From positions 1 through 63,046 of the IMG/VR virus record IMGVR_UViG_3300020171_000006: 63,046 bases of DNA. One strand, 5' to 3'. The stretch is from a virus. The translations under genes were made by a program, and so were the position numbers. Each line of letters opens with the position of its first letter. Position 1 is the stretch's first letter. Under the pieces are notes generated by a model, which worked only from the letters and a program-made list of their open reading frames with translations, did no database searches and was not told the origin of the DNA. Below are positions 1 to 63,046 of this stretch, piece after piece.

Positions 1-127
1 GCAATCTTTCGGGTGCCAAGATTGTCTCCGCATGTAATAGCTATAACAAGATGCGAAACCTGCTTGTGCTGATACTCGGCGGACACAAGCCAACCGAGAC
101 CGAAATCAAAGCCGCGCTGAAGGAGGA
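1..127. repeat. Left copy of 127-bp contig-end repeat
   Basis: Identical base for base to 62920-63046. The repeat falls inside a reading frame that is intact when the ends are joined. A length of exactly 127 is a common assembly k-mer size, so this is best read as a circular contig with a k-mer overlap. Confidence 0.97.
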
Positions 128-909: not shown

Positions 910-1059
910 ATGCATATAAAATATCCAAACATTACCGTTCAATTAGTTGGTGAAGATGGAAATGCATTTAATATTCTTGGAAAGGTAACAAAAACACTAA
1001 AAAGAAATAGAGTAATTCAGTCTGACTTTATTTTAATACCACCAAAAAAACATATATAA
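910..1059 (+). CDS. Small protein, truncated relative of the 59895 protein
   Basis: 49 residues from ATG 910, preceded by AAAGGA. The core VQLVGEDGNAFNILGKV resembles the start of the 62-residue protein at 59895-60083 and a small family common in phages and bacteria, whose C-terminal half normally ends in a conserved Tyr-Asp-x-x-Leu region. That half is missing: after residue 33 the sequence diverges and ends. Probably a shortened paralogue. Function unknown. Confidence 0.6.
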   Translation: MHIKYPNITVQLVGEDGNAFNILGKVTKTLKRNRVIQSDFILIPPKKHI

Positions 1060-1082
1060 TATAATAAGAGGGGAGATTCCAT

Positions 1083-27713: not shown

Positions 27714-28088
27714 CTATTCCACCTTTTTCTTCACTACTTTTTTCTTTTTTGCCGCTTGTTTCCTTTTAATTGTTGCCCTTGATTTTACTCTTTGTTCCTC
27801 TGTCCAAGGCGATAAAAAAGGTTTCTCTTTTGACTTTTCAATAATCTCACCCGCTTGGGTAGTTATAGGGGCGGATGATTCTTCAAGCATTGGCTCACCT
27901 CTATTGTATAGAATACTGGATTTACTTCTGCCAAAGAGATAGGGTTTCATATCAATTAAACAGTCTGCAATCTTCTGTGGAACATCATATTCTATATCTG
28001 ATTTATGAAATCTAAACCGTTCCTGAGATTCAGGGTCATAATAAGTGAATGTTTTTTCCGCCTCATTTCCAATAAACCAAATTCTCAT
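27714..28088 (-). CDS. Hypothetical protein with lysine-rich tail
   Basis: 124 residues from ATG 28088 after AGGGGAG. The first 60 residues (RIWFIGNEAEKTFTYYDP, FRFHKSDIEYDVPQKIADC) look like a small globular domain found near head genes; the C terminus is extremely basic (KRKQAAKKKKVVKKKVE), suited to DNA or capsid-interior contact. Overlaps the glycosyltransferase stop. Confidence 0.5.
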   Translation of the reverse strand: MRIWFIGNEAEKTFTYYDPESQERFRFHKSDIEYDVPQKIADCLIDMKPYLFGRSKSSILYNRGEPMLEESSAPITTQAGEIIEKSKEKPFLSPWTEEQRVKSRATIKRKQAAKKKKVVKKKVE

Positions 28089-29059
28089 TGTACTCCCCTT
28101 TCGGAAAGACATTTGTTATACAACCAATCAGCGAAATGTTTAGAAGTGTAATTGTTAGCTACTAATTCTCTTCCGGTATCTGCTATTTCTTGCCATCTAT
28201 CAAACTGTCCTTTTTCCATGTCATGAAGAAAACCATTTACTTCCCATTCAAGATTATCCTTAGTTACATAAACACAATTCTCATAATTCTTAAATCCTAA
28301 ATCCTCATACTCTTTGTGGTGCTGAATAAACGTAACCATACCGGCAAGTGGCATTTCAAAGTATTTAGGTACTGGATAAAATTCGGATAAGGCAAGTCCT
28401 CCAGCAAACATCTTCAGCATAAGATGATAATCTGCCCCGCAAGGTACTTTATCATTCTGTATCCAGTGGGGGATATAATGAATATAAGGTTGTTTAAATG
28501 CCCATTTCCTAAATTCGTAAGCACCAATACCGCCATCCCAGGTTGCACCATTGCCAAGAACTTCATGTATTCTATTTGTTATTAAACCAGTTCCGGGGAC
28601 AAAATTAGGAGTAAGTGGAAAATACCAAAGCATATTCTCACAATTACCATTTAAATATAGCTCAAAATATTGAAAGAATCTTTCCCTCACTGGTGATATA
28701 ATATGGTCTATATCCCTACTAAGGGAACGTTCAATACGCTGTTTAGCATCCAGTTTATGTACCACTACACCCGTGTCCTGGTACTGTCCCTTTACTTCAT
28801 TCTGATGAGGATCACTGAAATACTCTAATTTCAAAGCGGAATGCTTTTCAATTCCATCAATTTTAATGTGATGAGATGAATGAACATCGTAGAACAGAAT
28901 AACATCAGCATCAATATCCTGAGCAGAGCAGTCATTATTTATATCAGTAACATCAAATCTGCTCTGTTTCAACGCTTCAAACATATTTCTGAAAACTGGA
29001 CTATATGTTTGTGGTCTTAACTTCTGGTCGTTCTTATCGTACACCAGCGCAAATTTCAT
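28085..29059 (-). CDS. Glycosyltransferase, GT-B type
   Basis: 324 residues. The C-terminal part has SEFYPVPKYFEMPLAGMV, EYEDLGFKNYENCVYV and FDRWQEIADTGRELVANNYT, matching the end of glycosyltransferases that act on surface glycans (family 1-like C-terminal domain). The N-terminal Rossmann part starts MKFALVYDKNDQKLRPQ. First of three consecutive enzymes inside the virion gene cluster; 26 bases overlap with the next. Confidence 0.65.
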   Translation of the reverse strand: MKFALVYDKNDQKLRPQTYSPVFRNMFEALKQSRFDVTDINNDCSAQDIDADVILFYDVHSSHHIKIDGIEKHSALKLEYFSDPHQNEVKGQYQDTGVVVHKLDAKQRIERSLSRDIDHIISPVRERFFQYFELYLNGNCENMLWYFPLTPNFVPGTGLITNRIHEVLGNGATWDGGIGAYEFRKWAFKQPYIHYIPHWIQNDKVPCGADYHLMLKMFAGGLALSEFYPVPKYFEMPLAGMVTFIQHHKEYEDLGFKNYENCVYVTKDNLEWEVNGFLHDMEKGQFDRWQEIADTGRELVANNYTSKHFADWLYNKCLSERGVQ

Positions 29060-30140
29060 TTACCTGCTCCACAACTTTATGATTATGCATCCGCTCCATC
29101 ACTTCAGAATTCAAAGAGAATTCAAGTGTACCCTTCATCATTCTACCAACTCGTTCAAGACTAAATTCTTCCTCTGCTTGTTTTCTTATTGTTAATCGAA
29201 CATTATTATTTCCAGCAGTTTCCTGCCAGCATTTATCAATTTCCTGGGCAAATCCCTTTATATCTCTTGGATCATGATTATATTGAGTATAAGGAGAACC
29301 TCCACCCGCAACCATCGGAACACCTGAAGCCATCGCTTCCCTGACTGTTCTGGTTGCTATCACATGAGGGGTAATAAATATGTCTGCTGATCTATAAACA
29401 AATTCTAAACCAGTAACAAACTTCATGCATTCACCAATCAATTTTCCATATTTATTTATATAATCTCTCCGATAATCATTCTTCCAAATTCCATAAATGT
29501 GAATTGATGCCTTACTATTAATATGTCGTTTATAATAAAGTGCCGCTTGAAGTACATTAAATGGAGTAATATCCTCCCGCCACATATCGGTTATAATGAT
29601 ATTGGGTTCCCCACTATTCTCAAATTTCCTCTTAGTACCAAATGGAGTATATTTAATCAAATCAACAGGAGCAGGAACATAATGAACAAGGCTACTTGGT
29701 ACTAAATCCTCAAACATCTCCATGTATTCCTGCCAGAATGTAATGTACCCAAGACAGTTTTTATCCAGCACCTTATCGGTTATCATCTTAAAAACATCTT
29801 TTTTTCTATCTACCGGGTATGCCCCGCTTCTATACCCGGTAAGAAAAGAACTCTCAGGTCTTCCATGCAGACATATCATATAAGGAATATCCTTACGAAG
29901 ATAATCAAGAGGAATGTCAGAATGCCTGAGCATTATATTGGCATCATCACACCAATGTGGATTAACTGTTTTAATGGCACCATCAACTAATCCTACCCTA
30001 CAATTTGCCTGGTCTTTCCAACCAAAATCAATAAACTCAGCATCAAGTCCGGCCGCTCTCTCTGCTATTATTAGTTCTTTTGCTGTTTCGTACTGCCCAC
30101 TCTGGCATGGTGCAAATACTCCCCAATGCGCAACTTTCAT
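29034..30140 (-). CDS. Glycosyltransferase, GT4-like
   Basis: 368 residues. N-terminal VAHWGVFAPCQSGQYETAKE is a GT-B acceptor-domain start; the C-terminal domain has IFITPHVIATRTVREAMASG followed by VPMVAGGGSPY, the nucleotide-sugar site pattern (Glu in the E-A-M-A-S-G motif). Probably transfers a sugar to a virion protein or host glycan. Confidence 0.7.
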   Translation of the reverse strand: MKVAHWGVFAPCQSGQYETAKELIIAERAAGLDAEFIDFGWKDQANCRVGLVDGAIKTVNPHWCDDANIMLRHSDIPLDYLRKDIPYMICLHGRPESSFLTGYRSGAYPVDRKKDVFKMITDKVLDKNCLGYITFWQEYMEMFEDLVPSSLVHYVPAPVDLIKYTPFGTKRKFENSGEPNIIITDMWREDITPFNVLQAALYYKRHINSKASIHIYGIWKNDYRRDYINKYGKLIGECMKFVTGLEFVYRSADIFITPHVIATRTVREAMASGVPMVAGGGSPYTQYNHDPRDIKGFAQEIDKCWQETAGNNNVRLTIRKQAEEEFSLERVGRMMKGTLEFSLNSEVMERMHNHKVVEQVNEICAGVR

Positions 30141-30141
30141 T

Positions 30142-31074
30142 TTAGCTTTCCTCTTTTAAAGATTCAATAAGTGTTCTTGTTTTTGCTATCTGATTATCAA
30201 ACGTATAACCTTTTTCCTGTACAAATTTCCGACCTTCAATATGTCTTGGAGTTACAATCATATTGACCGCTTCATCAATAGTATTAAAAAGGGCTTCGGT
30301 TGGATAGAGTTGTTTTGCTCCATAAAAATTATGAATAACCGGTTGGATATTGTGGATCATTGCCTCGAAAATATTGTTACCAAAACTCTCGAATAGGGAT
30401 GTACTCAATAGATAGTTTTTATCCTGCCAAAAAGTTTCCATATTAGTAACAAAGCCATAATGAATAATGTTATCCTGCAGTCCCAGTTCTTTAGTCAGGT
30501 ATTCCATATAGACCCGATGTCGGAGTTCTCTATATGTGCCTGCTATGTGAAGTTTGAATTGAGGAGAAACATTATTCAGCTTTTTCATAATTTGAAGTAC
30601 CATTGGAGGATTCTTTCTATGATCTATCCCATTTGGAACCCAAGCAATATCATAACCAGTCTTAAAATTGTTATTAGAAGCATTTTCCAACTCGAAGCCA
30701 TTTTCAATTACAATAGATTTCACGTTTTTTATCTCATGATAAATCTCTCCTAATAATGTTTTTACATGCGAAGCCGTGAATACTAATCTATTAACAGCGT
30801 TCCACTCTATTCCCTTATACAGTTGATTAAATAATTCATAGCTCCGCAGTCTCACAATAACCTTCTTACCTTTGATAAATGGACTCTTGGTTCCTATTGC
30901 CGCCACTTCATTAGCAAACTCGAACCAAACTATATCTGCCCATTTAATTGCTTTTTCAATTCCTTCAACAGAGGAAACTTCTGCTAAACAGACATTATAA
31001 TCTTTTGAAAGAGCATCTACTGTCTTTCCTATAAGAGTATTAAAACCCTTAGCACAAATAAATGCTACTTTCAT
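30142..31074 (-). CDS. Glycosyltransferase, GT4-like
   Basis: 310 residues. MKVAFICAKGFNTLIGKT at the N terminus; DIAWVPNGIDHRKNPPMVL and YLLSTSLFESFGNNIFEAM (with the conserved Glu-Ser-Phe-Gly) in the C-terminal domain are typical of GT4 enzymes. Third of the set; its start lies 10 bases after the fibre-like gene at 31085. Confidence 0.75.
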   Translation of the reverse strand: MKVAFICAKGFNTLIGKTVDALSKDYNVCLAEVSSVEGIEKAIKWADIVWFEFANEVAAIGTKSPFIKGKKVIVRLRSYELFNQLYKGIEWNAVNRLVFTASHVKTLLGEIYHEIKNVKSIVIENGFELENASNNNFKTGYDIAWVPNGIDHRKNPPMVLQIMKKLNNVSPQFKLHIAGTYRELRHRVYMEYLTKELGLQDNIIHYGFVTNMETFWQDKNYLLSTSLFESFGNNIFEAMIHNIQPVIHNFYGAKQLYPTEALFNTIDEAVNMIVTPRHIEGRKFVQEKGYTFDNQIAKTRTLIESLKEES

Positions 31075-34288: not shown

Positions 34289-35143
34289 TTAGTAAAAGTT
34301 AAATAATTGTTTATTATCTTCTTTTTGTAAACACGCACATAATTCACTAATACAATTATTTATTGAATCATTAATTGCATGTTCCCAAAATCTTAATACA
34401 GTATAACCCTGTAAAGACCACAATTGATTTTTTAACTTATCTTGTTTAATCATATCTTTACGGTTATGCCAATAATCACCATCACACTCAATTATGATAT
34501 TATAATCCGGTAAAAAGAAATCCACACAAGAATATAAATTATCAATCACAATTGAATATTGCTTCTCATAATTTAAATTCAATTGTTTTAAAATTTTCTC
34601 AAAAGCAAGTTCAATGGAAGTATCTTTAATCTTACGAATGCTTCTAATACCGGAAACATAAGCAGTTTCTAAACTCTTACTTATACTTTCTCTGTGTTTA
34701 ATAGAAAGATTTTTATCCTTCCAATAAGCAATTAATTTACCAGAAGCATATTTTTCTTTTAAAACTTTACTGTGCTCCTTTTTCCATTGTTCTGTTTGCT
34801 TCTTACCTTTTCTTCCAGAAGTTTTTCCTTTATGAGCAATACTCATTTTTAATCGAGCTTCCTCTGAATGATTTTTTCCATAAAAAGGATTCTTTTCACC
34901 CTTTCTAATTTCACTCAATTTCTTTCTCGTCTCTTCTGAGTCCATAGGATTATAAAGTAAGCCAAGAGAATGTTGTTTCTTTTTTGTTTCACTAATTTTT
35001 CTCTTGTGTTCTTCTGAAAAGAATTTAGACTTGCCTCTTCCATTATGACCATTAATAAATCGGTTTCCCTGTTTTACTATTTGGCCACAACTACATTGGC
35101 AATACTTCTCATATGAATTTCTTTTTTCCATCTTATTTATCAT
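34289..35143 (-). CDS. Homing-type endonuclease, NUMOD3 repeats plus Vsr/DUF559-like nuclease
   Basis: 284 residues. N-terminal CQCSCGQIVKQGNRFINGHN is a Cys/His element; three NUMOD3-like DNA-binding repeats follow (SEEHKRKISE, SEETRKKLSE, SEEARLKMS). The C terminus has a restriction-fold nuclease: DTSIELAFEKIL, VDFFLPDYNIIIECDGDYWH and TVLRFWEHAI, with Asp/Glu/Cys-Asp as in Vsr-like enzymes. It sits as a free-standing gene just past the major capsid gene. A paralogue is at 54479. Confidence 0.75.
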   Translation of the reverse strand: MINKMEKRNSYEKYCQCSCGQIVKQGNRFINGHNGRGKSKFFSEEHKRKISETKKKQHSLGLLYNPMDSEETRKKLSEIRKGEKNPFYGKNHSEEARLKMSIAHKGKTSGRKGKKQTEQWKKEHSKVLKEKYASGKLIAYWKDKNLSIKHRESISKSLETAYVSGIRSIRKIKDTSIELAFEKILKQLNLNYEKQYSIVIDNLYSCVDFFLPDYNIIIECDGDYWHNRKDMIKQDKLKNQLWSLQGYTVLRFWEHAINDSINNCISELCACLQKEDNKQLFNFY

Positions 35144-44533: not shown

Positions 44534-45496
44534 TTACTCCTTTTTAAATATTAGAATGTTTTGATGGGTTTTTCCGAGTTTCTTTCCTGCTTCAAATTGT
44601 TTACCTACTCGTATTGGCAAAGAACCTACTGCTGTTATTAAAATTGCATCGTTATAGAGACCAAGACCACATTCTTGAAATATCTTGATTGTATCGGCAA
44701 CGAAACCTTGATAAAAACCTGTTTTTAAGTCTCTAAAATCTCCTACAACGAAGCAAGCCATACATCCGGGTTTTAACTTCTTTGAACATTGAGAAATAAT
44801 AGATTTATATGCTTTTATAAAATCTTTATAATTCATTGTAGAAAGGTCAGCAGGATCATCAGAATAACGCTCAAGATTGCCGTAAGGAGGACAGGTAAAT
44901 ATAAAATCAGCTTTAGGAGCATTATTTAACTTTTCTAAAGCATCACCACAAACCCATTTAATAGGTGCTTCTGAACATATTTCAGCTTTTTGAGTTTCAT
45001 TAGCATCTATTTGTACTTGCTGAAGTTCTATCCCATAATATTTATAACTAAGAATACCTGCTATAATACCACGAACAGAACCTCCAGCGAAGGGGTCTAT
45101 AATCTGCCCACCTTCAGGGCAGAACCAATGATACATAAGTTCACAAAGGGTGGGGTCAAATATGGAAGTTCCTTGTGTATCAGTAGTTTTCCGTGTTCCT
45201 TCTTTTACCCTATAAGCATCAAAAGAAGCGGCTTTTCCTTTAAATGTTAAACCACCTTTTTCTTTTTGTTCCCTTGTCCAAGTTTCCTTATCCCCGATTG
45301 CAAAGACTTTGCAATCGCGTCCTATTTCACTCTTAATCCCCAATGAAATCCATGCTCTTTTTCGTCTTTGCCATGCCCCTTCCCTTGCATTTAATACTGA
45401 AAATGGAGGAAATTCAAACTTTTGAGCAAGAATGCCCTTTTGCTGAATTATTGCAGTATCAAGTAAATCTTTACCAAATAAACTAAATTTTTCCAT
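44534..45496 (-). CDS. DNA methyltransferase
   Basis: 320 residues. DPFAGGSVRG is the SAM-binding motif I and FTCPPYGNLE the catalytic motif IV, in the order of beta-class N4/N6 amino methyltransferases. The N-terminal FPPFSVLNAREGAWQRRKRAW is a segment common in phage-encoded methylases paired with ParB-like domains. The Cys in CPPY replaces the usual Asp/Asn/Ser. It may protect phage DNA from restriction. Confidence 0.75.
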   Translation of the reverse strand: MEKFSLFGKDLLDTAIIQQKGILAQKFEFPPFSVLNAREGAWQRRKRAWISLGIKSEIGRDCKVFAIGDKETWTREQKEKGGLTFKGKAASFDAYRVKEGTRKTTDTQGTSIFDPTLCELMYHWFCPEGGQIIDPFAGGSVRGIIAGILSYKYYGIELQQVQIDANETQKAEICSEAPIKWVCGDALEKLNNAPKADFIFTCPPYGNLERYSDDPADLSTMNYKDFIKAYKSIISQCSKKLKPGCMACFVVGDFRDLKTGFYQGFVADTIKIFQECGLGLYNDAILITAVGSLPIRVGKQFEAGKKLGKTHQNILIFKKE

Positions 45497-45514: not shown

Positions 45515-46090
45515 TTAAACTTCCTTTTTTCTGAATCGTATACGTTGGACTTCTCGTTCCAGGTGTTCCATTTGTTTTGAAAGGTTTACAATAAACTCGA
45601 TGAGTTCTGCTTTTGTCTTTTTTTTCATTAATTTGTTATCTATAAGTGGTTCTGTAATGGGAGAAGCAGCTAATTCAAATGGAATATAGGCATCAACCTC
45701 TTTTCCAGCTTCTGTTTCGGTAAGGTAGTAGCAATTCTCAATATCATCTCTGAAAACCCTTAAAACAATACCTGAAGAACACATATGATAGCGTTCTGAG
45801 AGATACCGTATGATTGCAGCATCGGAATTATAATGTTTTCTTAAAAGAAGGTAAGAAAGACGTATTGATAAATACTCTAATTGTGTGGAAATGAGGTTTA
45901 CAGTTTTTGTACGTCTCTGGAGTCTCTGTAATTCACCAATAAGAAAATCAACATCTCTATCAAGTTCTAATATTTCCTTTTCTCGCTCTTTAGATCGTTT
46001 TTGAAAGTAAATATTACGTATTCTCTGGTTTGCGCCACGATGTTTAAATTGGTAATCACTGTAATCCTTCGTATTGCGTTCTATTGACAT
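45515..46090 (-). CDS. Hypothetical protein with coiled coils
   Basis: 191 residues. Basic N terminus (FKHRGANQRIRNIYFQKR), a central helical region (LISTQLEYLSIRLSYLL), and a C-terminal coiled coil (FIVNLSKQMEHLEREVQRI). Lies between the 53-residue gene and the methylase. No family recognised. Confidence 0.55.
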   Translation of the reverse strand: MSIERNTKDYSDYQFKHRGANQRIRNIYFQKRSKEREKEILELDRDVDFLIGELQRLQRRTKTVNLISTQLEYLSIRLSYLLLRKHYNSDAAIIRYLSERYHMCSSGIVLRVFRDDIENCYYLTETEAGKEVDAYIPFELAASPITEPLIDNKLMKKKTKAELIEFIVNLSKQMEHLEREVQRIRFRKKEV

Positions 46091-46242
46091 TCATTTTTCC
46101 TTTTTCTGTATTCCCTTTGAGATTCTGTGGAAGTTATTAATCTTCTTTTATCTTTTGCAAGAGCTATCCAATTATCCCTATCTTTTTTACTGAAGAAATA
46201 GCAAGGATGCTTGTCATTTTCTATCGCCCAGAATTTTAACAT
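46081..46242 (-). CDS. Small hypothetical protein, 53 residues
   Basis: ATG at 46242 overlaps the stop of the glycosyltransferase gene (ATGTTAA), stop TAG at 46081-46083 past the next ATG at 46090. Reads MLKFWAIENDKHPCYFFSKK and ends in a basic RKRKNECQ. It fills the gap between two genes with overlaps on both sides, which supports it as real. Confidence 0.55.
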   Translation of the reverse strand: MLKFWAIENDKHPCYFFSKKDRDNWIALAKDKRRLITSTESQREYRKRKNECQ

Positions 46243-47075
46243 TTATCTAATTTCTTTAAAACCATTCCATAATTATTTACTCTATCCGGTATAATTAATC
46301 CAGGTTTTTTAATAAGTTTATTGTTCTTAAATGATCTATAATCTACTTGATGATGCCATCTATTAAATTTCCAAGTAACTTTTACTACATCAGGATGCTG
46401 GTCTCTTAATGACTCAGCAAATTTTAATCTATTATCTCCATCAATATAAACACTATTGGTATTCCCACCTTTCATCTGTAATGTTGATATTTTAAATTGA
46501 ATGAAAGCATAAAACATAATAGTACACCAGCCATCTTTTAAAACTCTTAAAGATAAATCGGTATCTTCATTATATCGTCCACGCCATCTATAAGGAATAT
46601 CATTTTTTATAAGAATACATGAATAAATTCTTGTATTTAAAAAAAATGCTGGATACCTATCTTCATTCATTAATGAAAAATACCAATATTGAGGGCCAGC
46701 TAATGCTACATTTTCATATCTATCTACAAAATCTTCCATACACTTTAAAATAGTACCAGATGTTACTAATATTTTACAATTATTATTAAATCTTAAAAAT
46801 CTTTTAATATTATCATCCATAATCCAGTGTCTTTCTGTACCTATACCTATTGAATATTCCCATACCCAATTTCGAGCTGGTATTGAGCCTTGCCCTAAAT
46901 TACTAAACGGTAATACTAATATCTTTTTAGAATCAATGACAGAAGCATACTGGTTATATTCTTGTGGTTCAATAACTATATGATAGGGAACATTCATCTT
47001 TTCAAGAGCTTTACTCGTTAATCTGCTCTCCCAGCGACCCTTTGAAATGATATAAATTGGATATTTCGGTTGCAT
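46236..47075 (-). CDS. TET-associated-type glycosyltransferase (TAGT-like)
   Basis: 279 residues. YPIYIISKGRWESRLTSKAL at the N terminus, GSIPARNWVWEYS, HWIMDDNIKRF and WRGRYNEDTDLSLRVLKDGW match the family of glycosyltransferases found with TET/JBP dioxygenases in phages, which add sugars to hydroxymethylated bases. No TET/JBP protein was recognised in this genome, so the base substrate is unclear. Confidence 0.6.
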   Translation of the reverse strand: MQPKYPIYIISKGRWESRLTSKALEKMNVPYHIVIEPQEYNQYASVIDSKKILVLPFSNLGQGSIPARNWVWEYSIGIGTERHWIMDDNIKRFLRFNNNCKILVTSGTILKCMEDFVDRYENVALAGPQYWYFSLMNEDRYPAFFLNTRIYSCILIKNDIPYRWRGRYNEDTDLSLRVLKDGWCTIMFYAFIQFKISTLQMKGGNTNSVYIDGDNRLKFAESLRDQHPDVVKVTWKFNRWHHQVDYRSFKNNKLIKKPGLIIPDRVNNYGMVLKKLDKC

Positions 47076-47077
47076 AA

Positions 47078-47356
47078 TTAGTCCTTTTCATCAATATATA
47101 TTTTATTTTTTAATACTCTTTTTACTATAGTCGGAAACCATATATATTTTATATTTGGCGTAATATTTTGATCTATTAATTCTGCAAATTTATCTACATC
47201 TTCATCATTTCTAAAGTGAATTACTATTTGTCTCTTCGATTTTAAATTTTTAAGTTTAAATTCTGGCATATCTTTCCATTCATCTTCCCAATTCTGATCT
47301 TCCCAAAATAAATCATCCATACCAGGAATAGCTATATGCTTTTTCCTTTTAATCAT
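47078..47356 (-). CDS. Hypothetical protein next to the TAGT-like gene
   Basis: 92 residues. After an acidic Trp-rich part (DLFWEDQNWEDEWKDMPEF) it has QIVIHFRNDEDVDKFAELI and KYIWFP, a small alpha/beta segment seen near phage methylases and modification genes. Overlaps the next gene by 8 bases. Role unknown; a link to DNA modification is inferred from place. Confidence 0.55.
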   Translation of the reverse strand: MIKRKKHIAIPGMDDLFWEDQNWEDEWKDMPEFKLKNLKSKRQIVIHFRNDEDVDKFAELIDQNITPNIKYIWFPTIVKRVLKNKIYIDEKD

Positions 47357-47600: not shown

Positions 47601-48518
47601 TTATATAAGTGATGCCTCATACAACATATTTACCAGCATTGCTTCTCCACTATCATATGTATTTTGACTAAATATTTTTATCATTTCACATATTGCAGGA
47701 TCACCTTTAGAAAGTAATACTGTTTTCATATAGCCCAAGATGGCTCTCCTGATTTTCTCAGGATCTTTATCAGTTATCAATTTATAAGTAGAAGAAACCC
47801 TATCCCAATTTGATTTCTTTACTAATAGCCTGCATAAATCAAGTACTGATGCCTCAATTTCAGTATCCTGTTCTACAAGGTGCAATTGCTGTTCTTCATC
47901 TTCAACGGATAATGCCTTTTCAAGTAATGTTAAAGCTCTCCTGGGGCTACCCTCAGCCCTATCAATAATAGCAAAGAATACTATATCTGATATATCTTCC
48001 TGAAGGTCAAGAAGAGCACTATTTAATAAACTTTCCATCTCTTTTTCTGATAATAGATGTACTTCAAATACCGAACACCTATTTTTAATAGTAGCAATAA
48101 TCTTCTGAGGATCAGTAGAACAGAAAATGAAATAACTTGTAGACGGATAATCTTCTATTACTTTTAACAAGCCATTCTGGGCGTCCTTAGTAAGCTGGTG
48201 TGCTTCATCAAATAGGAATATACGACATTTCCCTGACATTGGTGAAACATGAGCTTGACTAATCACTTCCCTTATCGTATCAATTCCTCTGGTATTAGCA
48301 ACATTCAATTCTGAAAAATCAATATCTGAACAGTTAAATTCTTTAGCAAGTATTCTGGCTAATGTGGTTTTACCGCATCCCGAAGGACCACAAAATAGAA
48401 ATGTATGAGGACGTTTATCAGGACTGAATTTAACAATCTTCTGTAATGATTTAATGATTGCTTCATTTCCTATTACATCAGAAAAGGAAACGGGGCGAAT
48501 ATCATTATAAAGAGACAT
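47601..48518 (-). CDS. Sliding clamp loader subunit, DnaX-like
   Basis: 305 residues. Walker A GPSGCGKT 44-51, Walker B with DEAH 104-107, and an IKNRC segment in place of the SRC arginine finger motif. AAA+ core followed by a helical collar domain (about 220-305). It should load the clamp encoded at 51135. A single subunit gene probably makes the whole pentamer. Confidence 0.85.
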   Translation of the reverse strand: MSLYNDIRPVSFSDVIGNEAIIKSLQKIVKFSPDKRPHTFLFCGPSGCGKTTLARILAKEFNCSDIDFSELNVANTRGIDTIREVISQAHVSPMSGKCRIFLFDEAHQLTKDAQNGLLKVIEDYPSTSYFIFCSTDPQKIIATIKNRCSVFEVHLLSEKEMESLLNSALLDLQEDISDIVFFAIIDRAEGSPRRALTLLEKALSVEDEEQQLHLVEQDTEIEASVLDLCRLLVKKSNWDRVSSTYKLITDKDPEKIRRAILGYMKTVLLSKGDPAICEMIKIFSQNTYDSGEAMLVNMLYEASLI

Positions 48519-48529
48519 TATAAATATCC

Positions 48530-48718
48530 TTATATATCAAGTTTAATTCGTGTATTTTCCCTTGCCTTTTTTGCTTCTAATCTCTCTATTTTTTCACAAC
48601 ATCGCATAATTGCTAATCCAAAGCACATAGATTTAACTTCATTACTCCAGCCGCGTCCTTGTGCCCATCTAATATCTTGACAATATTCTGCAATCTTAAC
48701 TTTATAAGGTTTTTTCAT
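48530..48718 (-). CDS. Small hypothetical protein
   Basis: 62 residues from ATG 48718, coupled to the polymerase stop by TGATG (GTG 48721 is an alternative). Basic, with DIRWAQGRGWSNEVKSMCFG and a helical C terminus. It sits between polymerase and clamp loader. Unknown role. Confidence 0.55.
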   Translation of the reverse strand: MKKPYKVKIAEYCQDIRWAQGRGWSNEVKSMCFGLAIMRCCEKIERLEAKKARENTRIKLDI

Positions 48719-51138
48719 CACATCTCCTCCATCGAGAGCCAGTCAATACCACAAAGCCATTTCAATTTGAATGGGGCATTTTTAGTCCAAGACCAGTGAT
48801 TCTTGTTTATTGAGCATTCTTCAACTATTGCCATCAGTTCTTTCTGTTCCCGCTTCTTAACATCAAATGTGAGGCTATCATGAATTTGCAGTACTGGCAA
48901 TGACTCAAATCCTTTTATCAGCGGGAGGATCCGGTTTAAACTATCAAGTAAGCAATGAAATGCTGTTCCCTGTATTGGTGTATTTACAATCTGATTTCTG
49001 GATAATGGAGCATGCCGTCTAAACCCTGTTGCTAATTCTACATAACCATTTCTATCATAAAATCGTTCCTGTTCATCCTGCCAATCAGCAACTCCTCTAT
49101 AAGTATTATAAAACTCCTCCTCAATTTTCTTAACATGATTTTCCTCTACCCCTAAATTAGTTGATATTGTTTTATAGTAAGAACCATAAAGAAGTGCAAA
49201 CATAAACCCACCTTTAGCATTATTGCGCTCCTCTTTAGTAATCTTATTTTCTGGTTTTCTAAATAGTTTACTTGCCCAATATCTATGCATATCAAATCCA
49301 CTATATAACTGGTCTAATAGCACTTTGTCATGCGCTAATATCGCTTGTACCACTACTTCCATTGCTTTATAATCTGCTTCTAAGAAGAAATCATGTCGTG
49401 GTATAAATATCTTTCTAAATTCCCTCTGTTGCTCATCTCGTTTAGGAATATTCTGCAAATTAGGTGAATCACAGGAAGATCGAAATGACCGGGCAATCCA
49501 TAAATTATATGTTGGATGTAAGAATCCATCAGCATCACAGTATTTAATAATACTTTCTAAATAGGTACTTGACATCTTTTCAAGGGTTTTATAAGTAGTT
49601 ACTGCTTGGGCAAATTTACCTATTTCATCATTTTTGTTAGCAAGATATTCAAACAATTCATCATTAACCTGGGGACTGCCCTTTTCTGTTTCCGATAATG
49701 GCTCAATTCCATAATGATCGAAAAATACCCACCTCAGATGTAAGGATGAACCTGGATTGAATTTCTTACCTTTCACTCTTTCAAACTTATTCACAGCATC
49801 AGAAGATTTAATGATTTCTATTGCTGCATCCCTATCCTTATTTACTTTTGCCCGGTACTTTTCATAAGCGGGCATATCAATCTTAACACCATTATACTCT
49901 AATTCAGCAAGTGAAACATTAGATTGTATATAGAATTTTACTGGAACTATCTGTTTACGCCTTTTTAATTCTTTTGCATGATTAGAAGCTATTAAGATTG
50001 TAAATCGACTATCTAATCCTGAATACTTTACTTGATTTTCTAATGGGTTTGAAGCAAAGTTCTTTACATCCACCATATCCTTATATTCTTCACCTGTATT
50101 CTCAAATACCTGAAATGCTAAACTCTTCTTTTCTTGTCGCTCATCCAGAATGTGTTTAGAAAGCATAGTATCCCATACCCAGTTATTAACTGGATGTCTA
50201 AACAGTACTCGTGTCCATGCCTCTTCAAACTTAAAGGCTTGATTACATTTTGGAGTACTGGATTTTAAGAATTTAGAAAATGTATCCCATATTTCGGGGT
50301 CTTTTGGATGAAGAGGAATTACATAGGCTAAATCTTTAGATTGTGCTATTGAAACCATATGAATAATGGGATTTCCTGTATAAGGATTTAATTGATTAGT
50401 TTCATAATCAAAATTAGTTATTTTCTTATTATTAGTAAATAATTGGATAATTTTAATACAATCTACTTTATTTCCAAGCCAAATATTACCACCCATTCCA
50501 ATTAACTGTTCAGGTAAATCAATATCCAGATACTTTAAAGCCTTTTCCATATCTCGCATAAACACATCTTCCATATCTCGGTCACGAAGGATATAAGCAG
50601 GGTGATAATGAACGCTCACCCAACAATCATATTTAATTGAAGGATAAACATCGCCTCTAATAAGATGTAATCCTCCTTTTCCTCTTAACCCTGGAACAAT
50701 ATGATCTGGAAGCATTCTCTTTGCCGCTTGTAAACCAAAGCACATTATTAAACGCGGTTTAGCTTTCTTAATTTGTGCTTCTAATCGCTCATAACAATAT
50801 TCTACTTTACTTTCATCAAAAGTATTATCGGGTGGTCGGCATTGCAGAACATTGGAACGAGTACAATGCCTATCCATTTCAACCCCAAACTCGGAAAATG
50901 AATCATCAAGGAACTTACCGGCTTTCCCTATAAATGGGATTCCTGTTTTATCTTCCTCTTCACCTGGGGCTTCACCAATTATAAATATGTTTGATGCGCC
51001 CTCTCCAAATGGTTTTATCTTAGGATTTAAACATATTTTATAGAGTCCACACATCAGGCACGGATCAGCAACAAATCCATGATGCTTAACAATTTTCTTA
51101 CCGGCAACCTCATTTATATCAAAAAGCATATTTTTCAT
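48718..51138 (-). CDS. DNA polymerase I with N-terminal family 4-type uracil-DNA glycosylase
   Basis: 806 residues in three parts. UDG-like (1-200): C27, C30, C100 and C115 fit a Fe-S cluster, with GEAPGEEED 55-63 and HPAY 179-182. Exonuclease (about 240-400): FDYET (D244, E246) and YSGLDSRF 372-379. Polymerase (about 400-806): motif A DYKAMEV from D589, motif B R638..K642..YG with one residue more than in E. coli Pol I, motif C IHDS (D754) where E. coli has HDE. A UDG-like domain is known on the SPO1 polymerase. The fusion suggests care over uracil or modified pyrimidines. Confidence 0.85.
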   Translation of the reverse strand: MKNMLFDINEVAGKKIVKHHGFVADPCLMCGLYKICLNPKIKPFGEGASNIFIIGEAPGEEEDKTGIPFIGKAGKFLDDSFSEFGVEMDRHCTRSNVLQCRPPDNTFDESKVEYCYERLEAQIKKAKPRLIMCFGLQAAKRMLPDHIVPGLRGKGGLHLIRGDVYPSIKYDCWVSVHYHPAYILRDRDMEDVFMRDMEKALKYLDIDLPEQLIGMGGNIWLGNKVDCIKIIQLFTNNKKITNFDYETNQLNPYTGNPIIHMVSIAQSKDLAYVIPLHPKDPEIWDTFSKFLKSSTPKCNQAFKFEEAWTRVLFRHPVNNWVWDTMLSKHILDERQEKKSLAFQVFENTGEEYKDMVDVKNFASNPLENQVKYSGLDSRFTILIASNHAKELKRRKQIVPVKFYIQSNVSLAELEYNGVKIDMPAYEKYRAKVNKDRDAAIEIIKSSDAVNKFERVKGKKFNPGSSLHLRWVFFDHYGIEPLSETEKGSPQVNDELFEYLANKNDEIGKFAQAVTTYKTLEKMSSTYLESIIKYCDADGFLHPTYNLWIARSFRSSCDSPNLQNIPKRDEQQREFRKIFIPRHDFFLEADYKAMEVVVQAILAHDKVLLDQLYSGFDMHRYWASKLFRKPENKITKEERNNAKGGFMFALLYGSYYKTISTNLGVEENHVKKIEEEFYNTYRGVADWQDEQERFYDRNGYVELATGFRRHAPLSRNQIVNTPIQGTAFHCLLDSLNRILPLIKGFESLPVLQIHDSLTFDVKKREQKELMAIVEECSINKNHWSWTKNAPFKLKWLCGIDWLSMEEM

Positions 51139-54478: not shown

Positions 54479-55099
54479 TCATAAAATTTCTTTCAATATT
54501 TTCTTCATGCATTTTTCTGGTGATTTGTTTATTTCATGTTCCCAAAATCTTAGAGTTTTATATCCTAAAAACTGAGAGGCAAAATCTTTATTTAAATCCC
54601 TCTTTTTCATATCTGATAAATTATGCCAGTAATCACCATCACATTCTACAATTAAATTTGCTTCTGGAATAAAAAAATCTACTATCCCAACATTCTTAAT
54701 GTGGACTTGCTTTTTATATGAAATATTATTTTTCTTCAATTCCTTTTCAATGGCAATTTCAATGGAAGTATCTTTAAATCTATCTTTATTTTTCAGCATG
54801 TAATTAATATGTGAATTACTCATTTCTCTTTTTGATTCTTCAGAATGAGGCCGTCCTTTATGTGATTCACTCATTTTTCTTTTTGTAGTTTCTAGGTGTC
54901 TATAACCTTTATGTGATTCACTCGATTTTTTACGTGTTTCTTTAGAATTTAAAAAACCCAAACGTTCTTTTCGTTTTTTTCTTGAAATACTTATTTCTAA
55001 TTTTGTTTTTTCTGTTTGTTTTTTATTTCTTCGATTATGCCCATGAATAAATCTATTTCCTTTTTTTACTTCTTTACCACAACCACATTCACATAACAT
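54479..55099 (-). CDS. Homing-type endonuclease, second copy
   Basis: 206 residues from ATG 55099 (GAGGGA upstream). Starts CECGCGKEVKKGNRFIHGHN as in the 34289 protein, then NUMOD3-like repeats, then DTSIEIAIEKEL, VECDGDYWHNLSDM and TLRFWEHEI. Paralogue of the 34289 enzyme. The frame is open upstream to 55261 and beyond, adding a hydrophobic stretch right after recA; that part may be a separate small membrane gene joined in frame. Free-standing homing gene. Confidence 0.7.
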   Translation of the reverse strand: MLCECGCGKEVKKGNRFIHGHNRRNKKQTEKTKLEISISRKKRKERLGFLNSKETRKKSSESHKGYRHLETTKRKMSESHKGRPHSEESKREMSNSHINYMLKNKDRFKDTSIEIAIEKELKKNNISYKKQVHIKNVGIVDFFIPEANLIVECDGDYWHNLSDMKKRDLNKDFASQFLGYKTLRFWEHEINKSPEKCMKKILKEIL

Positions 55100-55266
55100 T
55101 TTATTTCCCTCAAAATTATAAAAAGGGCTGATTGCTTTGTGTTCATGGTATACAGGAAACCCTATACTACCCAAAGCGCACAGCCCTATATTATTGGCAA
55201 TAAAAAATCCTGCTGCCATGAACAATATCAATATAATATATTTTAAGAAAAAGTCAAACATTATTT

Positions 55267-56265
55267 TTATCTTAATCTTTTCTTTCTTTCTGATGGTAAA
55301 TATAGTTGTTTCCATAATCCATAAACTGTAGCTTCAAGTTCATCTTCAAGCCTATTTTCTTCTATATAATTTATCATATCATTAAATCTTAATTTTTTAC
55401 CATCAAATTGATGCCAACCTTTTGTCACATCTGATCTATTTTCCTGTAAAAATTTTAGCGAACTTGAGATGTTATCAATTCCATAATCAAACAGAATATC
55501 AAATGAACCTTCTCTGTATGGTGGTGCAATCTTGTTTTTATCCACCTTAAAATTGATTGTTACACCCATTATTTTCTTATGAGCGTTCTCTATCTTACCA
55601 CCCGGAGTTAATAAAACTCTTGTAGACGCATAAAATTTAAGTGCTTCACCACCACTATAAATATATTTTTTTATAAAACTTCCGCCTATATCCTGTCTTG
55701 TCTGATCAACAAAAATGAGAGATAGGTTCTTTTGGCAGAGTTTCCAGATTGTTTTACGGAATGAAGCACTTAATGCCTTTGCCCTGGATGCCCCATAAGG
55801 ATCTTTCTCATCCATTTCATGTTCTGAGGATATAGCAGATAGACTATCAATAGAAATAACATTAAGTGTATCAGGTTTACAATCTCTTAATGTTGGTTCA
55901 ATAATATTTTTAAAAAGGGATTCAATAGTAATATTATCTGTAGTATCATCTTTTATTATACTTTCCGAACGTGGGGAAAGATATATTAGTTTAGCAATAT
56001 CTATTCCAAATAGCATTTCAGCCCGTTTAGAATCAAATGTACCTTCAGTATCGACAAGAGTAGCTATACCTCCCTGCCGCTGGGCAGAACCCAGCGGCTC
56101 AAGGGATATGATGGATTTAGATGTGGATTCAGGGCCATATACATGAGATATTCTACCAACCCCAAATCCACCTGGCAATCTATCTGCAATGGCAAGGTCA
56201 AGAATAGTACATCCTGTTGAGAAATACCCGGAAACAGGAGGTAGGGAATCTATATTATCTTTCAT
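55267..56265 (-). CDS. RecA/UvsX-like recombinase
   Basis: 332 residues. Walker A GPESTSKS (44-51; Ser replaces the usual Gly before Lys), LVDTEGTFD, VISIDSLSAI (Walker B) and IFVDQTRQDIGG (a NQ-type L2 start) match the RecA family. It should promote strand exchange and recombination-dependent replication. ATGA overlap with the coiled-coil gene upstream. Confidence 0.85.
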   Translation of the reverse strand: MKDNIDSLPPVSGYFSTGCTILDLAIADRLPGGFGVGRISHVYGPESTSKSIISLEPLGSAQRQGGIATLVDTEGTFDSKRAEMLFGIDIAKLIYLSPRSESIIKDDTTDNITIESLFKNIIEPTLRDCKPDTLNVISIDSLSAISSEHEMDEKDPYGASRAKALSASFRKTIWKLCQKNLSLIFVDQTRQDIGGSFIKKYIYSGGEALKFYASTRVLLTPGGKIENAHKKIMGVTINFKVDKNKIAPPYREGSFDILFDYGIDNISSSLKFLQENRSDVTKGWHQFDGKKLRFNDMINYIEENRLEDELEATVYGLWKQLYLPSERKKRLR

Positions 56266-59063: not shown

Positions 59064-59345
59064 GCATCAACCTCCCCTCTTATTATATTATATACGTTTT
59101 TTCGATGGTATTAAAAGAGAAATAAAAATTATTTTTAATTATTTTATCTTTTATCTAATTATTATTAAAATAATATAATATGTTATAACCTATTGCCCTA
59201 TAATAAGTTATATTATTTAATACTATAAATCATAAGAAATTTAAAACAGATATTTAATACTATAAAAATCTAACTTGTTATCTACCATATAGTTATAAGT
59301 AAAAATATAATTAGGTTTTAAAAATAATAATATTATATTTATATC
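59064..59345. other. AT-rich hub between divergent arms, possible origin
   Basis: About 280 bases of very AT-rich DNA (runs such as TATTATATTATATAC, AAATAATAATATTATA) with no coding frame. Both arms start here. Such a region would suit divergent promoters and an origin. No clear iteron or DnaA box set was seen. Confidence 0.55.
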
Positions 59346-60531: not shown

Positions 60532-61260
60532 ATGATAGCAAGAAGCGAAGAACTTGCAGTAGCAGGAATTCCCGAACCAGTATGGACAGACACCTGGCAT
60601 CCAATTTCTCACAAAAGATGCATCGAGAATCTAACATCTGTTTTTGATCACATGAATCTTCCAGTTATTAGAAAGGATTATTCACTCAGCAAAGATAACA
60701 ATCAAGTATTTGCGTCTTGGGTACTTGATAAGAGAGAAATTGATGGACTTTCCCCCACAGTCATCTGGAGAAATTCCACCGATAAACAATTCCCCTTTGG
60801 AATTGCGGGTGGGACGCATACTTTTATCTGCTCCAATCTCGCATTCACCGCTGATTCATTCCTGGAATTTAGAAAACATACAAAAGGAATGGATGATGGT
60901 GAACTTTATCGAGTAATGCTTTCTGGGGTTGAAAAAATTCTTCCTCTTACAGATTCCTTTTCCAAATGGCATCTTTCACTTCATGATGTAAAGTTAAGTT
61001 ATGGAGAAATGAAAGAGCTTGCCTACGATGCCATCATCAATGAGGTTGTTAGCCGGAGAAAAGTAAATCAGTTTAACGAAATGCTCTTTGGTGAGCAACC
61101 TTCCTATACCTGGAATGAATTGCATGGTTTTCATGGAGCATGCACCGAACTCATGCGGGACACTAATATGACAAACTCAATGAGTCGGCAAGCATCATTA
61201 TTCAGTTTCATTTCTGAACGGTATGGAAAATATTTACCAGAAATAAAGACTGTTCAGTAA
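60532..61260 (+). CDS. DUF932-family protein
   Basis: 242 residues, AAGGAGT before ATG 60532. AGTHTFICSNLAF is closely like the DUF932 core, with TWNELHGFHGACTELMRDTNM and the C-terminal LFSFISERYGKYLPEIKTVQ. DUF932 proteins are widespread in phages and plasmids but have no known function. Shorter than many members, by its N-terminal part. AT-rich, unlike its GC-rich neighbours; followed by the 71-bp repeat. Confidence 0.7.
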   Translation: MIARSEELAVAGIPEPVWTDTWHPISHKRCIENLTSVFDHMNLPVIRKDYSLSKDNNQVFASWVLDKREIDGLSPTVIWRNSTDKQFPFGIAGGTHTFICSNLAFTADSFLEFRKHTKGMDDGELYRVMLSGVEKILPLTDSFSKWHLSLHDVKLSYGEMKELAYDAIINEVVSRRKVNQFNEMLFGEQPSYTWNELHGFHGACTELMRDTNMTNSMSRQASLFSFISERYGKYLPEIKTVQ

Positions 61261-61328
61261 TTAAAATTAATTTCACATCCTTCCCCCTCCCCCTTTAGGG
61301 GGGAGGGGAATGTAAAATAAAAATTGTT
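61258..61328 (+). repeat. 71-bp repeat with strong GC hairpin, copy B
   Basis: Identical to 823-893, starting with the TAA stop of the DUF932 gene. It contains the CCCCTCCCCC/GGGGGGAGGGG hairpin. The repeat and coding tail together mark a duplicated or exchanged segment. Confidence 0.85.
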
Positions 61329-62807: not shown

Positions 62808-63046
62808 ATGACCGAACAACATTCACCATTGACTATTGAAGTAAGCAAAAACACACTCGGCGATAAGATTACATACATTCGCGGAATTGATGACGAGATA
62901 GTATGTAGTTTTAAGACTTGCAATCTTTCGGGTGCCAAGATTGTCTCCGCATGTAATAGCTATAACAAGATGCGAAACCTGCTTGTGCTGATACTCGGCG
63001 GACACAAGCCAACCGAGACCGAAATCAAAGCCGCGCTGAAGGAGGA
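62808..63046 (+). CDS. Hypothetical protein crossing the contig junction
   Basis: ATG 62808 after GGAGGAATGAC. TEQHSPLTIEVSKNTLGDKI and CNLSGAKIVSACNSYNKM; continues into bases 128-131 to a TGA stop, 80 residues in all. The intact frame across the join supports a circular genome. Function unknown. Confidence 0.75.
   Translation, partial: MTEQHSPLTIEVSKNTLGDKITYIRGIDDEIVCSFKTCNLSGAKIVSACNSYNKMRNLLVLILGGHKPTETEIKAALKE
62920..63046. repeat. Right copy of 127-bp contig-end repeat
   Basis: Identical to bases 1-127; one copy should be dropped when the genome is closed to 62,919 bp. Confidence 0.97.

What the first reader, a model, noticed from the sequence alone, without database searches (positions are those of the whole stretch)
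46236..47075. TAGT-type glycosyltransferase without a visible TET/JBP partner
SKGR, GSIPARNW, MDDNI and RYNEDTDLSLR match the glycosyltransferases that decorate 5-hydroxymethyl bases in TET-encoding phages. No dioxygenase or hydroxymethylase was seen, yet the phage also has a UDG-polymerase fusion and a methyltransferase. It may hypermodify DNA by an unknown route, or depend on host-made bases.
Basis: partly seen in the sequence, partly recalled or inferred. Interest (0 to 1): 0.7.

Follow-up and report, generated by a model that had tools for sequence, protein, structure and literature searches.

The report
Phage DNA-glycosylation enzyme with unknown target
This virus carries a sugar-attaching enzyme that almost always travels with a small, previously unnamed partner protein and in some viral relatives is fused to the DNA-copying enzyme, so it probably decorates viral DNA with sugar, although none of the enzymes known to make the attachment site could be found.

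Summary
The ORF at 46236-47075(-) is a genuine TAGT glycosyltransferase (Pfam PF20691, 144 bits, cut-off 27.5; invariant DD and NEDTD residues). The record has an exact 127-bp end repeat, so it looks complete. Six-frame searches found no TET/JBP, thymidylate-synthase/hydroxymethylase-family or C5-methylase gene. The 92-aa ORF directly upstream (47078-47356), here called S, matches no Pfam or PHROG family. It precedes TAGT in 78 of 80 viral loci (the other two are cut by contig ends) and accompanies it in 28 of 29 prokaryote-genome loci. It is fused to TAGT in Aeromonas, Vibrio, Tenacibaculum and Pectobacterium phages, and often follows a ParB domain like that of phage DNA methylases. Two relatives fuse TAGT to DNA polymerase A, one through a UDG domain; others have polymerase A, B or C, or a clamp-like gene, nearby. 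I infer a replisome-linked DNA glycosyltransferase module. Its acceptor is unknown: TET is absent from 98, and the thymidylate-synthase family from 99, S-TAGT viral records. TAGTs without TET are already in the literature; the S partner and polymerase fusions were not found in the papers read. New variant of a known kind.

The parts
46236..47075 (-). TAGT glycosyltransferase (GT-A fold), 279 aa; invariant K12, R14, R68-N69, W84, D87-D88 (DxD-like MDDN), D171/D173 (NEDTD), G203-G204, R239
47078..47356 (-). S protein: 92-aa conserved partner (W..MPEF...FxxxEDxxxFxxLixQxiTxkTksiWxP), in no Pfam or PHROG family; stop codon 2 nt before the TAGT start codon
47349..47585 (-). 78-aa ORF overlapping the S start; no relatives in the 80 TAGT loci; unknown
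47601..48518 (-). DNA polymerase clamp-loader ATPase, 0.5 kb from TAGT
   Evidence: phrog_5846, 1e-63
48530..48721 (-). 63-aa ORF, unknown, between clamp loader and polymerase
48718..51138 (-). UDG + 3'-5' exonuclease + family A DNA polymerase, the same architecture that is fused to TAGT in L345
51135..52190 (-). DNA polymerase sliding clamp (beta-clamp type)
44534..45496 (-). N6/N4-type DNA methylase with an N-terminal stretch similar to the C-terminal part of a ParB-type protein; next gene but one downstream of TAGT
45515..46090 (-). 191-aa ORF of unknown function between TAGT and the methylase; not conserved with TAGT
1..127 (+). left copy of the exact 127-bp terminal direct repeat (other copy 62920-63046): genome complete/circular

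Best explanation
TAGT and its upstream S protein form one functional unit. Shown here: they are genetically almost inseparable and are often one polypeptide; TAGT has the fold and invariant acidic residues of an NDP-sugar-dependent GT-A transferase. Inferred: S docks on TAGT and helps it onto its substrate. In many relatives the S domain follows a ParB domain of the kind that phage ParB-DNA-methylases carry, so S/ParB would be the DNA-recruiting side and TAGT the sugar-transferring side. Inferred from fusions to and adjacency with replicative polymerases and clamp-like genes: the acceptor is phage DNA, modified at or just behind the replication fork, which would protect it from host nucleases. 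Not shown: the acceptor group. It is not supplied by a recognisable TET, dCMP/dUMP hydroxymethylase or C5-methylase gene of this phage, so it comes either from an activity not recognised by these families or from direct glycosylation of an unhydroxylated base. Some cassettes add NDP-sugar epimerases, methyltransferases or a radical-SAM enzyme, which suggests that donor and product sugar vary.
For: TAGT membership; GT-A fold by Foldseek; invariant residues kept. S directly upstream in 78 of 80 TAGT-seeded viral loci, the other two being contig edges; S-seeded scan finds TAGT beside it in nearly every locus; S accompanies TAGT in 28 of 29 genome loci. Overall, of 337 distinct TAGTs, 32 fused, 288 with S upstream, 2 edges, 15 none. 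Fusions in isolates Aeh1, 65, PTm1, Kuja, POP12, Vibrio 1.076.O and 1.124.O. No other window gene travels with TAGT: 0-2 of 80 loci. Polymerase links: S-TAGT-exo-PolA in one ORF; TAGT-UDG-exo-PolA in one ORF with S just upstream; UDG-PolA 2 nt downstream of S-TAGT in L030; Pol III alpha-UDG upstream in L026; PolB within 3 kb in 17 loci; clamp-like gene directly after TAGT in four loci. ParB domain of ParB-S is related to that of phage ParB-methylases. Tailoring genes inside cassettes. No TS family in 99 and no TET in 98 S-TAGT records.
Against: No biochemical evidence exists for this clade; the acceptor is unidentified, and a GT needs a nucleophile. In 26 of 80 loci a terminase-like gene family recurs in the neighbourhood, so polymerase adjacency is not universal, and most records searched have no Pol A at all (5 of 50 have one). 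Each polymerase fusion is a single metagenomic contig. The profile built on this clade does not reach T6 ggt, the characterised DNA transferase (E 0.11), although both pass the Pfam cut-off. The S-docking inference rests on fusions and on one AlphaFold model.
Confidence: 0.62

Rival explanations
1. S-TAGT is an ordinary 5-hydroxymethyl-base glycosyltransferase; the hydroxymethyl base is made by a diverged or host enzyme that the family searches miss.
For: All characterised members of PF20691 that I read of act on hydroxymethylated or already glucosylated pyrimidines (PMC13216743, PMC13390438). Larger S-TAGT phages (Aeh1, 65, PTm1, Kuja, POP12, henriette) do carry thymidylate-synthase-family genes.
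Against: Window: no Tet_JBP, TS-family or C5-methylase match in six frames and no candidate among the larger unannotated ORFs scanned. No such gene in about 100 S-TAGT records. C5 methylases in only 5 of 45. The two 47-kb vibriophage isolates lack both TET and TS.
Confidence: 0.3
2. S-TAGT glycosylates protein, virion or cell-surface glycans, not DNA.
For: The tailoring genes found in some cassettes (NAD-dependent sugar epimerases, FkbM methyltransferases, other GTs) also occur in surface-glycan clusters, and the window has three GT genes in its virion cluster. DALI places T6 TAGT near GT2 (PMC13216743).
Against: Two independent fusions to DNA polymerase A, clamp-like and polymerase adjacency, ParB fusion, family precedent on DNA, and position inside the replication cluster of the window, away from the virion GTs.
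Confidence: 0.12
3. The cassette acts on DNA of competitors or the host rather than on the phage's own DNA, as a mobile interference gene.
For: It is mobile: up to 76% identity between a 63-kb phage and a 334-kb jumbo phage, in otherwise unrelated gene contexts.
Against: Polymerase fusion points to the phage's own replication fork. Mobility fits an anti-restriction gene equally well.
Confidence: 0.05
4. Missing genes: the record is a fragment and TET or hydroxymethylase lies outside it.
For: IMG/VR records can be partial (stated).
Against: Exact 127-bp terminal direct repeat and full replication, head and tail modules indicate a complete genome; the same absence recurs in about 100 other records.
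Confidence: 0.03

Closest known systems
TET-associated glycosyltransferases (PF20691) in TET operons, e.g. Nonlabens phage P12024L gp26 (TET) - gp27 (TAGT) - gp28 (methyltransferase)
   Same: Same Pfam family (P12024L TAGT 76 bits), GT-A, phage early region
   Different: P12024L TAGT is beside TET and a methylase and has no S; S-TAGT phages have S and no TET
T6/T2 beta-glucosyl-HMC-alpha-glucosyltransferase (ggt)
   Same: PF20691 member (35.8 bits, cut-off 27.5); near replication genes and DNA polymerase; TET-free pathway
   Different: Lies next to gene 42 dCMP hydroxymethylase and, per PMC13216743, works on alpha-glucosyl-hmC; no S; not reached by the S-TAGT profile
Fused TAGT of Aeromonas phages Aeh1, 65 and phiAS5 (Aeh1: 'presumably modifies DNA, unknown base', PMC8056088 citing Iyer et al. 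2013)
   Same: Same S+TAGT unit (46-49% identity in TAGT); one polypeptide in Aeh1 and 65
   Different: Large T4-like genomes; Aeh1 and 65 have thymidylate-synthase-family genes; S and TAGT are separate genes in the window
Phage ParB-DNA methylase fusions
   Same: Related ParB domain stands before S as stands before the methylase
   Different: Methyl transfer by a Rossmann methylase in place of S + glycosyltransferase
T4 alpha-GT (GT-B) associated with the replisome (PMC13216743)
   Same: DNA glycosylation proposed to be coupled to replication
   Different: Unrelated fold; acts on 5hmC; not fused to polymerase

Membership tests
TAGT (Pfam PF20691) | Profile match above the curated cut-off over the whole domain | tested here: met
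   143.9 bits vs 27.5, profile 1-205 of 205
TAGT (Pfam PF20691) | GT-A fold with conserved acidic DxD-type and second acidic motif | tested here: met
   Foldseek best hits are GT-A transferases, E ~1e-4, on the S-TAGT model of relative L029; invariant D87-D88, D171, D173 in the window protein
TET/JBP-TAGT hypermodification operon | TET/JBP dioxygenase in the same genome | tested here: not met
   No PF12851 in the window; 0 of 98 S-TAGT viral records; positive control rings
T-even HMC glucosylation pathway | dCMP hydroxymethylase (thymidylate-synthase family) | tested here: not met
   No PF00303 in the window nor in 99 records
T-even HMC glucosylation pathway | alpha- or beta-GT (PF11440, PF09198) making the first glucosylation | tested here: inconclusive
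   No such match among the ORFs scanned with Pfam; no six-frame search for these families and the smallest ORFs were not scanned
S-TAGT module (defined here) | S protein directly upstream of, or fused to, TAGT | tested here: met
   47078-47356 precedes TAGT by 2 nt
DNA glycosyltransferase (activity) | Transfers sugar to a base in DNA | not testable with these tools
   Only indirect: polymerase fusions, ParB fusion

The most novel reading that the evidence does not exclude
S-TAGT glycosylates DNA without any prior hydroxylation: the transferase, recruited by S/ParB and by the polymerase (or working with the UDG domain of the polymerase), attaches the sugar directly to an unhydroxylated base, for example at an exocyclic amine as N6/N4 methylases do, or to a group made by a new enzyme class. 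That would be a one-step DNA glycosylation pathway carried by hundreds of viral contigs.
Probability: 0.22. Interest if true: 0.88.

Novelty: new variant of a known kind. Interest (0 to 1): 0.68.

Why it matters
A 2026 paper on T4 glucosyltransferases (PMC13216743) leaves open what the hundreds of TAGTs lacking alpha- and beta-GT act on. The S partner, the natural fusions to DNA polymerase and the absence of hydroxyl-making enzymes make that question directly testable: co-express two small genes, or measure nucleosides in two described 47-kb vibriophage isolates. If the acceptor is not a hydroxymethyl base, a new DNA modification chemistry is involved, with consequences for restriction evasion, sequencing artefacts and enzyme tools.

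Tried and rejected
Fragmentary genome as the reason for the missing partner: rejected (127-bp terminal repeat). MTase 44534-45496 or ORF 45515-46090 as TAGT's constant partner: neither occurs in any of the 80 TAGT loci. PDB sequence search with TAGT: nothing. AlphaFold of S alone: mediocre (pLDDT 71); the first combined alignment A3 was unusable because MAFFT laid S rows on TAGT, so natural fusions were used (A5, pLDDT 91, pTM 0.88). Mycobacterium phage Cooper accession was not held; P12024L served as TET control instead. S in TET phages: the 71-aa ORF before TET in P12024L resembles S only at E 0.012 and the ParB proteins of HTVC112P and Nigel not at all, so not claimed. C5 methylase as a hidden common partner: 5 of 45 records, rejected. 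Radical SAM as the universal acceptor-maker: found in only a handful of loci and not seen among the scanned window ORFs, rejected as general.

Full report
What is there. The window is a whole IMG/VR virus record of 63,046 bases. Its first and last 127 bases are identical, the usual sign of a complete circular assembly (62,919 bp). The ORF at 46236-47075 on the minus strand matches Pfam PF20691, TAGT, with 143.9 bits against a cut-off of 27.5 over the full profile, and PHROG 842. Among 62 aligned relatives, including two TET-linked TAGTs, D87-D88 of MDDN, D171 and D173 of NEDTD, R68-N69, W84 and G203-G204 are invariant. A model of a natural S-TAGT fusion from a relative (pLDDT 91, pTM 0.88) finds GT-A transferases in the PDB and TAGT-annotated phage proteins among viral structures.

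No hydroxyl-maker. Six-frame searches of the record find no Tet_JBP, no thymidylate-synthase family, which includes the dCMP and dUMP hydroxymethylases, and no C5 DNA methylase. Pfam scans of most larger ORFs offer no candidate. The Tet_JBP search works: it rings in phage P12024L. The same absences hold for 98 (TET) and 99 (TS family) other viral records with this TAGT, many of them fragments, and for the 47-kb isolates Vibrio phage 1.076.O and 1.124.O. Larger relatives (Aeh1, 65, PTm1, Kuja, POP12, henriette) do have TS-family genes; whether these are synthases or hydroxymethylases was not resolved.

The partner. A TAGT-only scan of viral contigs found 564 relatives, of which 80 were kept. 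When every gene of the surrounding cluster was searched in those loci, only one travelled with TAGT: the 92-aa ORF 47078-47356, here called S (78 of 80; every other gene 0-2). S lies upstream on the same strand, usually directly and most often overlapping TAGT by 11 nt; the two loci without it are cut by contig ends. In the window the S stop codon is 2 nt before the TAGT start. S is not in Pfam or PHROGs. Its core is W..(E)W..MPEF.........F...ED...F..L..Q..T.....W.P. An S-seeded scan returns TAGT beside S in practically every locus. In prokaryote genomes S accompanies TAGT in 28 of 29 loci; one of these has S downstream and the exception is a broken ORF; hosts include cultured Erwinia and Pantoea. 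Over all distinct TAGTs collected: 337, of which 32 fused to S, 288 with S upstream, 2 at edges and 15 without, two of these TET-linked. This pooled figure includes S-seeded loci, so the TAGT-seeded sets are the unbiased ones. In the isolates Aeh1, 65, PTm1, POP12, Kuja (twice), 1.076.O and 1.124.O, S and TAGT are one protein. About 30% of separate S proteins are long, and those examined include a ParB_N domain before S related to the ParB of phage ParB-methylases.

Link to replication. In the window TAGT sits 0.5 kb from the clamp loader and 1.6 kb from the UDG-exo-PolA polymerase. In L183/L344 a single 1,091-aa ORF holds S, TAGT, exonuclease and Pol A. In L345 a 1,062-aa ORF holds TAGT, UDG, exonuclease and Pol A, with S just upstream. 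In L030 a UDG-PolA gene starts 2 nt after S-TAGT. L026 has a Pol III alpha-UDG fusion upstream of S-TAGT. Pol B lies within 3 kb in 17 loci, among them the S-less clade around L382. Clamp-like genes directly follow TAGT in four loci, with weak Pfam support. Polymerases of families A, B and C are thus linked to one glycosyltransferase family, and twice it is fused to Pol A. Each fusion is a single contig; the ORFs are long and open.

Other cassette genes. Between S and TAGT or next to them lie, in some loci, NAD-dependent sugar epimerases (5), a class I methyltransferase (7), FkbM methyltransferases and a radical-SAM/SPASM enzyme (6 in the clustered set). I read them as donor-sugar or product-tailoring enzymes; this is inference.

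How it probably works. S docks on TAGT. In the fusion model of L029 the conserved W..MPEF stretch is predicted with pLDDT about 80-95, while in the S-only model it was about 70; the comparison is imperfect because protein and alignment differ. S, and ParB where present, bring TAGT to DNA; polymerase and clamp bring it to the fork; TAGT transfers a sugar from an NDP-sugar. The acceptor is the open question. Known members act on hydroxymethylated or glucosylated cytosine (T6: PMC13216743, PMC13390438). Here nothing recognisable makes such a base.

What was known. T6 ggt belongs to PF20691 (PMC13390438). 288 of 753 GT-encoding phage genomes have a TAGT without alpha- or beta-GT (PMC13216743). Aeh1's enzyme is tabulated as DNA-modifying, unknown base (PMC8056088, citing Iyer et al. 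2013, which I could not read). I found no mention of S or of polymerase fusions in the papers read, but the library lacks many journals.

Verdict.

Noticed in passing
window 28085-31074 (-): Three consecutive glycosyltransferase-like genes (29034-30140 and 30142-31074 GT-B type, 28085-29059 weak) inside the virion gene cluster; possibly glycosylation of virion proteins.
   Followed up: partly
window 34289-35143 and 54479-55315: Two NUMOD3/DUF559 homing-endonuclease-like genes about 70% alike in stretches, inserted in the capsid and recA regions.
   Followed up: no
window 1031-1078 and 59069-59116: 48-nt inverted repeat, 92% complementary, bounding the plus-strand higher-GC arc around the circular junction; possible origin or divergent control region. 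A 133-nt direct repeat (761-893, 61196-61328) lies in the same arc.
   Followed up: no
L026:6287-9772: DNA polymerase III alpha (PHP domain) with a C-terminal UDG domain, just upstream of S-TAGT; UDG domains recur on polymerases next to S-TAGT.
   Followed up: partly
L174 (HTVC112P gp17-gp18) and L178 (Nigel_1-Nigel_2): A ParB-domain gene lies directly upstream of TET in two TET phages, parallel to ParB-S upstream of TAGT.
   Followed up: partly
L005:10834-11814, L030:7314-8471, L081:7998-8957, L011:1525-2616: Radical-SAM/SPASM enzyme within S-TAGT cassettes in varying positions.
   Followed up: partly
L382, L384, L385, L387, L392: Clade of TAGTs without S, most directly downstream of a family B DNA polymerase.
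   Followed up: partly
BFVD A0A6G6XN95: An 890-aa viral protein aligns to the whole S-TAGT model (TM 0.82, 40% identity); likely a further fusion, not identified.
   Followed up: no
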